Positions 7,666 through 52,832 of a stretch of DNA of 64,000 nt are shown here, in pieces. How positions within the stretch are numbered: position 1 is the first letter of the stretch; every line of letters begins with the position of its first letter. The translations under genes and the position numbers were made by a program. Source of the DNA: Catellatospora paridis (GTDB lineage: Bacteria; Actinomycetota; Actinomycetes; Mycobacteriales; Micromonosporaceae). Below the pieces are notes generated by a model. It saw nothing but the letters and a program-made list of their open reading frames with translations. It was not told where the DNA came from and searched no databases. Location of the stretch: NCBI RefSeq assembly GCF_009720365.1, contig NZ_ML769314.1:611264-675263 (forward strand). The letters run 5' to 3'.

Positions 7666-9534
7666 GTGGCAGGGCAGACAGCCGGCGCCGAGCCGAAGAG
7701 ACCGGATATCACCGGGCGTGATGTGCTCGCCCGCGGGGCGCGGGTGATGTGGCGCGGGATCCGGGACGAGCCGCGCCGGTTCACGACCGCCGTGCTGGGC
7801 AGCTGCCTGTTCGGCGCGCTGGTCATCGGGCAGGCGATAGTCGTCGGCTGGCTGGTCGACGAGCTCATCGAGCCCGCCACCACCGGGGGCGACGTCCGCG
7901 CGGGTGCGATGGCGCTGGGCGCGACGGTGCTGATCGCGATGGGGCTGGGCCGGGTCGCCGGCATCTTCGGCCGCCGGCTGGGCGCGGGCTTCATGCAGTT
8001 CGCCCTGCAGGCGAAGTACCGCCACGAGGTGACGCGCCGCTACCTGCAACTGCCCGTCTCCTGGCACCAGCGCCACGCCACCGGCACGCTGCTGTCCAAC
8101 GCCAACTCCGACGTCGAGGCCGCCTGGTTCCCGGTCGCGCCGCTGCCGTTCGCGGTCGGCACCATGTTCATGCTGGTCGTCGCGGTGGCCGTGCTGTTCG
8201 CGGTGGACTGGGCGCTGGCCCTGGTCGGCCTGGTGGTCTTCCCGGTGCTGTTCGTGATGAACGTGGTGTTCTCCCGGCGGATGGCCCCGCGCCAGGCCCG
8301 CGCCCAGCACCTGCGCGCCGAGGTCGCCGCGATCGCGCACGAGAGCTTCGACGGCGCACTGGTGGTAAAGACCATGGGCCGGGAGGACCTGGAGACCCGC
8401 CGCTTCGCGGCGCGGGCCGGCGAGCTGCGCGACGCGCTGATCAGCGTCGGCCGGCTGCGCGGCCTGTTCGATCCGCTGATGGAGTCGCTGCCGTTCCTCG
8501 GCACGCTGCTGGCGCTGCTGGTCGGCGCGTGGCGGATGGACCAGGGCGCGATCGGGCTCAACGAGGTGGTGCAGGTGACCTTCCTGTTCACCGTGCTGGC
8601 GTTCCCGGTGCGGGCCATCGGCTGGGTGCTCGGCGACCTGCCGCGCTCGGTCGCGGGCTGGGACCGGGTGGAGCACGTGCTCGAGTCGACCGGGCAGATG
8701 CCGTACGGCGCACAGGCCCTGCCGGGTTCCGGCGCTGCCGAGCTGAGCTTCCGCAACGTCGACTTCGCGTACGAGCCCGCGCAGCCCGTGCTGCGCGACG
8801 TCACCTTCACCGTGCCCGCCGGGCGCACGGTCGCCCTGGTCGGCCCGACCGGGTCCGGCAAGTCGACCATCGCCACCCTGGCTGCCCGCCTGCTCGACCC
8901 CGAACAGGGGCAGGTCGCCCTCGACGGGACCGACGCGCGCGGGCTCAGCTCTGCCTCGCTGGCGCACACCGTGGCGCTGGTGCCGCAGATCGCGTTCGTC
9001 TTCGACGACACCGTGCGCGGCAACGTCGCGCTGGACCGGCCCGGCATCGACGACGACCGGGTGCACGAGGCGCTGGCCACCGCGCAGGCCGACACGTTCA
9101 TCGCGCGGCTGCCCGAGCACCTGGACACCCAGCTCGGCGAGCGGGGCACGTCGCTGTCGGGCGGCCAGCGCCAGCGGGTGACCCTGGCCCGCGCGCTGGC
9201 CGGGCAGCCGCGGCTGCTCATCCTCGACGACGCGACCAGCGCCGTCGACCCGCGGGTGGAGGCCCGCATCCTCGCCTCGCTGCGCGGGTCCGCGCAGACC
9301 ACGACGATCCTGGTCGTCGCGTACCGCCGGGCCACCATCGCGCTGGCCGACGAGGTCGTCTACATCGAGTCCGGCCGCGTGGTCGCCACCGGCACCCACG
9401 AGCGGCTGCTGGCCACCGTCAGCGGGTACGCCGACCTGGTCACCGCGTACGAGAAGGCCGAGGAGGAGCGTGAACGCGAGCGGCTCTACGACGACGCCTC
9501 CGCTGTCGAGCAGGAAGAGGAGGTCGCCGCGTGA
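7666..9534 (+). CDS. ABC exporter half-transporter, degenerate-site subunit
   Basis: About 622 residues: six membrane helices (residues about 40-330) followed by a nucleotide-binding domain with Walker A GPTGSGKST, canonical signature LSGGQRQR, and Walker B LLILDDATSAVD. The residue after the Walker B aspartate is Asp where a catalytic Glu is normal, so one ATP site built from this subunit should be weak. The partner at 9602 has the complementary change, as in heterodimeric exporters of the BmrCD/TM287-288 type. GTG at 7666 is chosen because GGGGA lies 5 nt ahead. The substrate is unknown; multidrug or lipid export is the usual role. A 24-codon mini-ORF links it to its partner. Confidence 0.85.
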   Translation: MAGQTAGAEPKRPDITGRDVLARGARVMWRGIRDEPRRFTTAVLGSCLFGALVIGQAIVVGWLVDELIEPATTGGDVRAGAMALGATVLIAMGLGRVAGIFGRRLGAGFMQFALQAKYRHEVTRRYLQLPVSWHQRHATGTLLSNANSDVEAAWFPVAPLPFAVGTMFMLVVAVAVLFAVDWALALVGLVVFPVLFVMNVVFSRRMAPRQARAQHLRAEVAAIAHESFDGALVVKTMGREDLETRRFAARAGELRDALISVGRLRGLFDPLMESLPFLGTLLALLVGAWRMDQGAIGLNEVVQVTFLFTVLAFPVRAIGWVLGDLPRSVAGWDRVEHVLESTGQMPYGAQALPGSGAAELSFRNVDFAYEPAQPVLRDVTFTVPAGRTVALVGPTGSGKSTIATLAARLLDPEQGQVALDGTDARGLSSASLAHTVALVPQIAFVFDDTVRGNVALDRPGIDDDRVHEALATAQADTFIARLPEHLDTQLGERGTSLSGGQRQRVTLARALAGQPRLLILDDATSAVDPRVEARILASLRGSAQTTTILVVAYRRATIALADEVVYIESGRVVATGTHERLLATVSGYADLVTAYEKAEEERERERLYDDASAVEQEEEVAA

Positions 9535-9605
9535 GCGAGCGGAGCGAGCGAACCATGATGCAGATTTTTCACGCCATCGACGAGCGCAGCGAGGAGAAGG
9601 CGTGA
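9531..9605 (+). CDS. 24-codon coupling mini-ORF between exporter subunits
   Basis: GTG at 9531 overlaps the TGA stop of the first exporter gene (GTGA), and the TGA at 9603-9605 overlaps the GTG start of the second one (GTGA again). The predicted peptide begins VSERSERT and ends DERSEEKA. Its last codons contain GAGGAG, which is the Shine-Dalgarno of the next gene. It could couple translation across the 67-nt gap; whether the peptide itself matters is unknown. The same layout is seen at 17086-17296, 22411, 40217 and 52803. Confidence 0.45.
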   Translation: MSERSERTMMQIFHAIDERSEEKA

Positions 9606-51828: not shown

Positions 51829-52806
51829 ATGACCATCCCGGACACGTCGGCCACCCCGGTGCCGCGGGACGCCGAACCGATCAAGGCGATCCCGGTCCGG
51901 CACCCGGGACGGTGGGTCGCCGTCGCCGTGATCGCGGTGCTGGTGGCGATGTTCGTGCACCTGCTGCTCACGAACGACGCCTTCCACTGGGAATTCATGT
52001 TCCGCAACATGTTCACGCCGCCGGTGCTGCGCGGCGTCGCCGGCACGGTCGTGATCACGATTCTGTCGATGATCATCGGTGTGCTGCTGGGCATCGTCGT
52101 CGCCGTCGCACGGCTGTCGAACAACCCGATCCTGCGTGGCGTGGCCTGGGCCTACACCTGGTTCTTCCGGGCCGTGCCCCGGTACGTGCTGCTCATCGTC
52201 ATGGGCAACCTGGGCATCCTGTGGTCGCGGCTGGAGGTCGGCGTTCCGTTCGACACCTATCTCGGCCGCCTGTTCGGCGTCGAGGACGCGCAGTGGCGGC
52301 TGTTCGGGCTCGACACCCGCGACCTGCTCAGCGGGTTCACGGTCGGCGTGCTGGGTCTGGCGCTGTCGGAGGCGGCGTACATGGCCGAGATCGTGCGGGC
52401 CGGCATGCTCTCGGTCGACCCGGGCCAGGACGAGGCGGCCACCGCGCTCGGCATGAGCCGCGGCCAGGCGCTGCGCCGCGTGGTGCTGCCGCAGGCGATG
52501 CGGGTCATCATCCCGCCCACCGGCAACGAGTCCATCGCCATGCTCAAGGACACCTCGCTGCTCATCGCGGTGCCGGTCACCGACGAACTGTTCTTCCAGC
52601 TCTCCGCCATCGGCAACCGGTACTTCCTGATCTTCCCGATGCTGGTCGCGGCGATGCTGTGGTACCTGTTCCTGGTCAGCATCCTGCTGGTCGGTCAATA
52701 CTTCCTGGAGAAGCGCTTCTCCCGCGGCTACGGCCGCGCCGACAAGGCGAAGATGAAGCTCGAAGGCCTGGCCGCCGAGCACGGAGCGAACCCGGAGCTG
52801 CCATGA
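51829..52806 (+). CDS. polar amino acid ABC transporter permease
   Basis: Protein of 325 residues, HisM/GlnP family. An N-terminal cytoplasmic segment precedes about five membrane helices; [32 protein letters not shown] starts the inner-membrane transport domain, and the ATPase-contact loop [29 protein letters not shown] is clear. A single permease gene means it should act as a homodimer. It begins 3 nt after the binding protein gene. Its stop overlaps the ATG of a 9-codon mini-ORF. Confidence 0.92.
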
Positions 52807-52832
52807 GCGAGCGCAGCGAGGAGAAGGCATGA
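52803..52832 (+). CDS. 9-codon coupling mini-ORF (MSERSEEKA)
   Basis: ATG at 52803 overlaps the permease stop and TGA at 52830-52832 overlaps the ATG of the ATPase gene, both as ATGA. The peptide MSERSEEKA equals the two ends of the 24-codon ORF at 9531 (VSERSE... and ...SEEKA) with the middle missing. It carries the GAGGAG ribosome binding site of the next gene. Confidence 0.4.

What the first reader, a model, noticed from the sequence alone, without database searches (positions are those of the whole stretch)
9531..52832. A relay of tiny ORFs bridging operon gaps by ATGA/GTGA overlaps
At five junctions (exporter subunits 9531-9605; hisI-trpE 17086-17296; trpB-trpA 22411-22497; pyk-tesB 40217-40267; permease-ATPase 52803-52832) the gap is filled by ORFs of 9-28 codons. 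Each begins at the stop of the upstream gene (four of five in a four-base overlap, one 1 nt after it) and ends in a four-base overlap with the start of the downstream gene. All seven start-to-start steps (71, 65, 71, 71, 83, 47, 26) are 2 modulo 3, as an unbroken chain requires, and none has an internal stop. The ORFs end in codons such as GAG GAG AAG GC that form the next Shine-Dalgarno. Several share SERSE-type wording. Seen directly: positions and phases. Inferred: the ORFs are translated and keep terminating ribosomes in place for re-initiation. The alternative is a dispersed ribosome-binding-site repeat with the ORF as a by-product.
Basis: partly seen in the sequence, partly recalled or inferred. 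Interest (0 to 1): 0.8.

Follow-up and report, generated by a model that had tools for sequence, protein, structure and literature searches.

The report
Dispersed mini-gene repeats bridging operon genes
Small repeated DNA inserts sit exactly where one bacterial gene stops and the next starts, each carrying a tiny reading frame that can keep the two genes' translation connected; they work like the MIRU repeats known from mycobacteria, but here they occur in other actinobacteria.

Summary
Four junctions are real insertions; pyk-tesB is a coincidence. The window is from an unnamed Catellatospora. Exporter, hisI-trpE and permease-ATPase carry one dispersed repeat family; trpB-trpA carries a different insert. 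Related species still show the empty site, a bare 4-nt xTGA stop/start overlap. At nine such junctions in nine genomes all 31 insertion states, in 13 lengths, keep the chain of frames, while the peptide drifts. Gaps without the element are bridged about as often as shuffled ones, so this is no general relay. The repeat's left end fits a hairpin of G-C pairs and G.A mismatches with a GNA loop that closes on the start codon: its first base covaries with a base 22 nt on (A-T or G-C in 99 of 106 distinct copies). The left end occurs in 17 named actinobacterial genera. At the MIRU type locus senX3-regX3, Mycobacterium-genus genomes show the same empty/filled pattern and a similar core. Best reading: MIRU-type coupling-preserving insertion elements beyond mycobacteria. 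Translation is inferred; the mobilising machinery is unknown.

The parts
9531..9605 (+). Complete element between two exporter genes: mini-ORF VSERSERTMMQIFHAIDERSEEKA, starting in the upstream stop (GTGA) and ending on the downstream start (GTGA)
   Evidence: orthologous site empty (xTGA) in G129, G051, G118, G016 and G133
9531..9553 (+). Left hairpin GT-GA-GC-GA-GC-GGA-GC-GA-GC-GA-AC; first base of the start codon faces base 23 (G-C)
   Evidence: RNA fold of this GTG-type sequence gives this hairpin, the DNA fold only its inner part; covariation
9569..9605 (+). Right hairpin TCACGCC...GGCGTGA around C-GA-GC-GCA-GC-GA-G; includes the downstream start codon
   Evidence: folds; swap and shuffle controls over 132 elements
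9591..9601 (+). Shine-Dalgarno-like stretch GAGGAGAAGGC of the element, before the downstream start
   Evidence: sequence; function inferred
17086..17154 (+). Divergent, probably old unit at hisI-trpE (frame kept; no left hairpin sequence)
   Evidence: same-length insert in G125 and G087, empty ATGA in G129, G100, G051, G071
17151..17225 (+). 71-nt unit, first tandem copy (loop ATC, x=A, Y=T)
   Evidence: not seen at this junction in the six relatives compared
17222..17296 (+). 71-nt unit, second identical tandem copy, ending on the trpE start
22411..22497 (+). Different insert at trpB-trpA (28 codons plus stop, ends ...GGTGGCACA-GTGA), chain kept
   Evidence: 79-nt gap also in G129 and G087, empty xTGA in G125, G051, G071, G118, G016 and G109, G133
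40217..40267 (+). ORF between pyk and tesB: not a conserved chain and not this element; taken as coincidence
   Evidence: gap 48 in G000, G129, G087, G100 and 53 in G125, G051, G071
52803..52832 (+). Solo form (26-nt step) at permease-ATPase: what remains if the stretch between the two GAGCGCAGCGAG copies is lost
   Evidence: relatives carry inserts with gaps of 93, 129, 49 and 37 nt, all chained, or an empty xTGA (G051, G071, G118)

Best explanation
The repeats are MIRU-type dispersed elements. A short repeat (mostly about 65-86 nt start to start, with shorter remnants) inserts, co-oriented with transcription, into the 4-nt stop/start overlap xTGA of neighbouring genes. It carries a mini-ORF that starts in the upstream stop and ends on the downstream start, and a Shine-Dalgarno-like sequence near its 3' end. 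A terminating ribosome can therefore restart on the mini-ORF and again on the downstream gene, and the operon keeps its coupling. Insertions or later length changes that break the frame are removed by selection; the peptide itself does not matter. A unit has two hairpins that take in the two start codons. They may serve spreading as single-stranded DNA, or keep the start sites closed until a ribosome arrives, or both. Shown: repeat family, empty sites, frame preservation, covariation, distribution of the left end. Inferred: translation, re-initiation, purifying selection as the filter, mobility. Unknown: the mobilising machinery.
For: Dispersed family: 316 copies of the left end (<=3 mismatches) in 11 of 11 Catellatospora genomes, 70 in this one, reversed-pattern control 0 in all. 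Empty sites: nine junctions with a bare xTGA in some genomes and an insert in others. Frame: 31 of 31 insertion states chained, 13 lengths, 18 distinct junction-length states (29 by script; the other 2 had been cut one base short and are chained on recheck). G087 at the exporter lost an inner stop/start together with 5 nt, so the fused ORF still ends on the exporter start. Wider: of 117 distinct left ends (<=3 mismatches) in 104 GTDB loci the mini-ORF ends on an xTGA start in 103, reads into a long frame in 12, ends elsewhere in 2; in the Catellatospora sequence held 23 of 25 (own) and 15 of 16 (relatives) end on an xTGA start. Orientation: next gene co-directional in 87, opposite in 1, unknown in 6 of 94. 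Covariation: of 351 column pairs the highest non-adjacent mutual information is 1-23 (z 29.6), then the loop pair 11-13, then 5-19 and 6-18 (150 of 316 rows). Right hairpin: stem through the downstream start 6.37 vs 5.30 +/- 0.11 swapped and 4.23 +/- 0.10 shuffled, 132 chained elements. MIRU likeness: review passage (PMC12548453); type locus senX3-regX3.
Against: No expression data. The genome-wide bridged count is not clearly above the shuffled control (33 vs 28.4 +/- 2.7, maximum 35). A fixed element length of 2 mod 3 plus a 4-nt target duplication would put founder insertions in phase without selection; only later length changes test selection, and species share history. Folding energy of the hairpins is no better than shuffles (z -0.95 to 1.68 over eight folds), the DNA folds do not give the whole left hairpin, and for the ATG-type left end the best RNA fold has a shifted outer stem (ATGA with TCAT) instead of the x-Y pair. 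At pair 5-19, of 15 changed rows only 2 are compensated and 12 are mismatched (1 G-T); at 6-18, of 18 changed rows 5 are compensated, 7 are T-G and 6 mismatched. At one further element-bearing junction, without a bare overlap in any genome (own C3 581-582 kb), 5 of 9 states are chained from the upstream stop, this genome's not. The Mycobacterium type-locus units share the core but not the long left end, and 4 of 13 gaps >=20 nt there are not chained, one of them (L324) clearly repeat-like. 12 of 117 GTDB copies read into a long frame. At the exporter the empty genome G129 is nested among filled ones, so loss or repeated gain must be assumed.
Confidence: 0.85

Rival explanations
1. Regulatory relay: the mini-ORFs are adaptive devices that hold terminating ribosomes in place, chosen for their effect on the downstream gene.
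For: Chain preservation; Shine-Dalgarno-like 3' end; the right hairpin takes in the downstream start codon.
Against: Close relatives do without: the same junctions are bare xTGA overlaps in other species of the genus. Presence is patchy, similar copies sit in unrelated places, and bridging outside the element is at the shuffled level. Peptide not conserved.
Confidence: 0.1
2. Dispersed ribosome-binding-site repeat; the open frame is a by-product of GC-rich sequence and a fixed unit length.
For: Shuffled interiors stay bridged almost as often, 28.4 vs 33. The unit brings its own Shine-Dalgarno-like end.
Against: Lengths vary at the same junction (gaps 22, 37, 49, 93, 129 at permease-ATPase) yet keep the chain; compensated loss of an inner stop/start in G087; distance from left end to right hairpin motif is 0 mod 3 in 60 of 76 copies that have the motif.
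Confidence: 0.05
3. The hairpins are primarily an RNA switch: start codons are closed in the mRNA until a ribosome coming from the upstream gene opens them (unfolding form of coupling), and the repeat spread because of that.
For: Both hairpins take in start codons; RNA folding of the exporter unit gives both.
Against: In RNA a G-U closing pair should be tolerated, yet x=G/Y=T is rarer than the mismatch x=A/Y=C (1 vs 5; 5 vs 12). Folding energy is unexceptional. Two copies in the 1.58 Mb follow a gene on the other strand, so have no upstream cistron.
Confidence: 0.25
4. Spread by a Y1 (IS200/IS605 or RAYT type) transposase acting in trans on REP-like hairpins.
For: Hairpins near both ends and pairing between element and flanking target base resemble that logic (recalled).
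Against: Y1_Tnp (PF01797) found in 6 of 11 genomes, none in G087 (33 copies) or G133 (21 copies); a loose hairpin motif gave 5 hits around the nine Y1 loci, none like the element by eye.
Confidence: 0.05

Closest known systems
Mycobacterial interspersed repetitive units (MIRUs; Supply et al. 1997, not read, cited through passages of PMC12548453 and PMC2734929)
   Same: Short dispersed repeats at stop/start overlaps, an inner ORF coupled to the next gene at -4 spacing, varying tandem copy number, empty sites in relatives; at the senX3-regX3 type locus a shared GAGC-GNA-GCGA core.
   Different: Different unit sequence in Catellatospora and the other genera, with a long left end that takes in the upstream start codon; found outside mycobacteria.
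REP/BIME repeats with RAYT transposases and IS200/IS605 elements (recalled)
   Same: Short dispersed sequences with hairpins; possible base pairing with the flank.
   Different: No matching Y1 transposase in copy-rich genomes; the site is a stop/start overlap; carries a frame-constrained ORF.
Termination-reinitiation at ATGA overlaps (review PMC12548453, passages)
   Same: Same 4-nt stop/start geometry at each link.
   Different: Here the overlap is multiplied by inserted units; ordinary overlaps have none.

Membership tests
MIRU | Short (40-100 bp, PMC2734929 passage) repeats scattered over the chromosome | tested here: met
   70 copies in this genome, 316 in 11 genomes; chained units printed at 51-90 nt including both xTGA
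[quoted passage not shown]
   Geometry only, coupling not assayed: 31 of 31 orthologous states; 103 of 117 GTDB copies
MIRU | Apparent mobility: empty and filled orthologous sites | tested here: met
   Nine junctions
MIRU | Tandem copies with varying number | tested here: met
   One to three units at one junction between species; triple 65-nt array in C. sichuanensis
MIRU | Sequence relatedness to the mycobacterial unit | tested here: inconclusive
   Similar core, CAGAGC-GNA-GCGATG in three type-locus junctions vs CGAGC-GNA-GCGAG here; the long left end is present (<=2 mismatches) in only 3 of 60 Mycobacterium-genus genomes; M. tuberculosis MIRU consensus not obtained
MIRU | Occurs in mycobacteria | tested here: not met
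   Window genus is Catellatospora (same-genus genome G125 shares two contig lengths with C. sichuanensis); so MIRU-like, not MIRU by name
REP/RAYT or IS200/IS605 | Cognate Y1 transposase in the genome | tested here: not met
   No PF01797 match in 5 of 11 genomes, among them two with 33 and 21 copies
Functional leader peptide or small protein | Conserved amino acid sequence | tested here: not met
   108 substitutions, 43/31/34 on codon positions 1/2/3, in 15 pairwise comparisons (at most 35 percent different), which are not independent

The most novel reading that the evidence does not exclude
A family of actinobacterial hairpin elements chooses its sites by base pairing: the base in the left hairpin that faces the first base of the start codon acts as a guide, so T-type elements go to ATGA and C-type elements to GTGA. 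An unidentified, widely conserved machinery moves them as single-stranded DNA with GNA mini-hairpins, and classical MIRUs are one branch of this family.
Probability: 0.25. Interest if true: 0.8.

Novelty: new variant of a known kind. Interest (0 to 1): 0.6.

Why it matters
MIRUs are commonly used as strain-typing markers of mycobacteria (PMC2734929 passage), and I met no account of how they move in the passages I saw. If the same kind of element is spread over other actinobacteria, its mobility and its effect on translational coupling can be studied in harmless strains. The start-codon covariation gives a concrete, testable structural handle. The frame preservation is also natural evidence that ATGA coupling matters for fitness.

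Tried and rejected
General relay in all operon gaps: rejected (gaps without the core 16 of 465, shuffled 16.3). pyk-tesB as a member: rejected. Y1 transposase as mobiliser: not supported. Rfam: one tRNA only in the window. Folding energy as proof of the hairpins: uninformative. The +1/+2 frame controls printed are invalid (+1 meets the TGA at once, +2 is the downstream frame by construction) and were dropped. Eleven junctions mix -4 and other gaps; at 49 and 63, and for G087 and G071 at 27, I read the other gap as a start miscall of my gene caller and did not count these rows; for G125 at 7 and for G000 and G125 at 27 I moved the start to the orthologous one before counting. The 9 of 240 bridged states at junctions with no -4 genome are only a loose control, since most lack the xTGA ends. 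The 20-120 nt range quoted was chosen after seeing the data; the other ranges are given in the report. For one search, 150 of 316 matches were listed and used. In one search, 16 matches near locus ends were dropped. Paper searches (listings, and passages of four papers): no listed title or abstract start reports such elements outside mycobacteria; one search found no paper with any of five element DNA words or one peptide word. This is not proof of absence from print. A simple gene caller of my own was used, no curated annotation.
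Full report
What was checked. All seven ORFs and all seven steps are as stated.

Chance. I fetched 1.58 Mb of this genome, trained a simple codon-usage gene caller (1,359 genes) and listed 844 co-directional neighbours. 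Of 494 with a gap of 20-250 nt, 33 are exactly bridged. Shuffling the gap interiors with the ends kept gives 28.4 +/- 2.7 (maximum 35); randomising the phase gives 17.9 +/- 3.3. Among gaps with xTGA at both ends, the bridging phase holds in 28 of 40 at 20-120 nt (p = 2e-6 against one third; range chosen after the fact), in 7 of 19 at 121-250 nt, and in 35 of 59 over 20-250 nt. The excess sits in gaps that hold one hairpin motif: 17 of 29 bridged, against 12.0 +/- 1.7 shuffled and 7.6 +/- 2.1 random phase. Gaps without it give 16 of 465, against 16.3 +/- 2.3 shuffled and 10.2 +/- 2.5 random phase. So there is no sign of a general relay; there is one repeat family that bridges.

The element. Its typical form in this genome is xTGA-GCGAGCGNAGCGAGCGAAYCATG-(variable)-CATGCCGCCGACGAGCGCAGCGAGGAGAAGGC-xTGA. 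Typical gaps are 64 or 67 nt, some units are tandem (138 nt), and a 22-nt solo form is what remains if the stretch between two internal GAGCGCAGCGAG copies is lost. With up to 3 mismatches the left end occurs 316 times in 11 of 11 Catellatospora genomes, 4 to 70 copies each, with no hit for the reversed pattern. In the window, the exporter, hisI-trpE and permease-ATPase junctions carry it. The trpB-trpA junction carries a different insert that also keeps the frame; related sequence was seen at two other places in the 1.58 Mb. The pyk-tesB ORF is not conserved as a chain and is set aside.

Empty sites and frame. The his/trp region was taken from eight relatives and orthologous junctions were compared. 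Eighteen junctions show the bare 4-nt overlap in at least one genome; seven of them show nothing else. At nine, other genomes carry an insertion; at the remaining two I read the odd gaps as start miscalls. There are 31 insertion states with 13 different gap lengths (22 to 203 nt), 18 distinct junction-length states. All 31 keep the chain: 29 by script and 2 on recheck of a string that had been cut one base short. At permease-ATPase five genomes have five different lengths, all chained. At the exporter, G087 lost an inner stop/start and 5 nt together, so that the fused frame still ends on the exporter start. In 15 equal-length comparisons (not independent) 108 substitutions fall 43/31/34 on codon positions 1/2/3, so the peptide is not what is kept. 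Against this: at another junction with the element but no bare overlap in any genome (own C3 581-582 kb) 5 of 9 states are chained from the upstream stop, and this genome's is not. At junctions where no genome shows the overlap, 9 of 240 gap states are bridged; most lack the xTGA ends, so this is only a loose control. A tree of 31 shared proteins places the exporter-empty genome G129 as sister to the filled window genome, so precise loss, replacement or repeated gain must also happen.

Distribution. The 80 rows shown name 17 genera (two of them, Sporichthya and Dactylosporangium, only as MAGs), among them Nocardia, Micromonospora, Nocardioides, Aeromicrobium, Streptomyces, Kitasatospora, Actinoallomurus and Mycolicibacterium, besides other MAGs including an Acidimicrobiales bin. 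Of 94 usable matches 87 have a co-directional next gene; from the left end one lands in that gene's frame in 83, in 8 of these by reading straight in (that call gave no valid frame control). With looser matching and TTG allowed, 103 of 117 distinct copies end on an xTGA start, 12 read into a long frame, 2 end elsewhere. A shorter exact pattern occurs in all 11 genomes of the genus but in only 7 of the 139 others sampled from the family.

Hairpins. First seen by eye, then counted: the first base of the start codon (x) and a pyrimidine 22 nt on (Y) vary together, A-T 65, G-C 34, A-C 5, G-T 1, T-T 1 among 106 distinct copies (Fisher p 4e-21 on the 2x2 part; copies are related, so the p value overstates independence). 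In the 150 listed Catellatospora rows the figures are A-T 109, G-C 22, A-C 12, G-T 5, C-T 2. This fits a hairpin in which G-C pairs alternate with tandem G.A mismatches around a GNA loop. An all-against-all mutual information test on the 150 rows puts 1-23 first among non-adjacent pairs and also finds 5-19 and 6-18, which the hairpin predicts; 11-13 is the loop, and 26-27, adjacent, is highest overall. Rows with both partners changed to another Watson-Crick pair: 2 at 5-19, 5 at 6-18, 1 at 9-15. Mismatched rows also exist: 12 at 5-19 and 6 at 6-18, besides 1 and 7 G-T/T-G rows. In 132 chained elements the stem that pairs the downstream start codon with the unit's own middle is longer (6.37) than after swapping middles (5.30 +/- 0.11) or shuffling them (4.23 +/- 0.10). 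d(GCGAAGC) is reported as an extraordinarily stable DNA hairpin (passage in PMC6582339, citing Hirao 1994); that the element uses this in DNA is inference. Standard folding energies do not single the hairpins out, DNA folds do not give the whole left hairpin, and the ATG-type left end prefers a shifted outer stem in the RNA fold.

Known relatives. A 2025 review says that MIRUs appear mobile and insert at start codons with an inner ORF coupled at -4 spacing, which likely lets them insert with minimal impact (PMC12548453, passage). I tested the MIRU type locus: with this genome's RegX3-like protein (named from its place next to senX3-like and phoU genes and its best matches) I fetched 30 junctions of unnamed Mycobacterium-genus genomes. 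Eleven have the bare overlap (9 at -4, 2 at -1), 5 a gap under 20 nt, 9 a gap of 20 nt or more that is chained (1-nt TGATG links allowed), 4 such a gap that is not chained, and 1 was not readable. Five of the nine chained ones hold the core GAGC-NNN-GCGA; the three printed read CAGAGC-GNA-GCGATG, the same design as the right-hand core here. So the way of working is that of MIRUs; membership by name fails because these are not mycobacteria, and the sequence link rests on the core only.

Mechanism and limits. The best-supported account is a coupling-preserving insertion element. What moves it is open: the Y1 transposase family is missing from two copy-rich genomes. Whether the hairpins serve DNA mobility or RNA control is open; the rarity of G-T against A-C at the closing pair (6 against 17 together; the two sets may share copies) leans away from a pure RNA role but is weak. 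Translation of the mini-ORFs was not observed.

Noticed in passing
window 22411-22497; own genome C3:452767(-) and C7:153910(-): A second kind of bridging insert with CGAG(C/T)CCCGCAG, in two of three places followed by TCGCGAAC and GGTGGCA.
   Followed up: partly
window 17151-17296: Two identical 71-nt tandem units at hisI-trpE, not seen in the six relatives compared there: a candidate variable-number locus for strain typing.
   Followed up: partly
L217 (C. sichuanensis): Array of three 65-nt units of another unit type in front of one gene; similar single units stand at own C7:335943 and in L239.
   Followed up: no
L291 and L295 (two Mycobacterium-genus genomes): A copy of the left end with CTG instead of a start codon and the same following sequence in both genomes; looks decayed or reused.
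   Followed up: no
L189, L191, L195, L263, L282 (GTDB loci; L189, L191 and L195 are Nocardia): The left end of the element has become the in-frame N-terminus of what look like orthologous genes of 343-354 codons.
   Followed up: no
window 43679-43762 (-): tRNA gene, the only Rfam match in the window.
   Followed up: no
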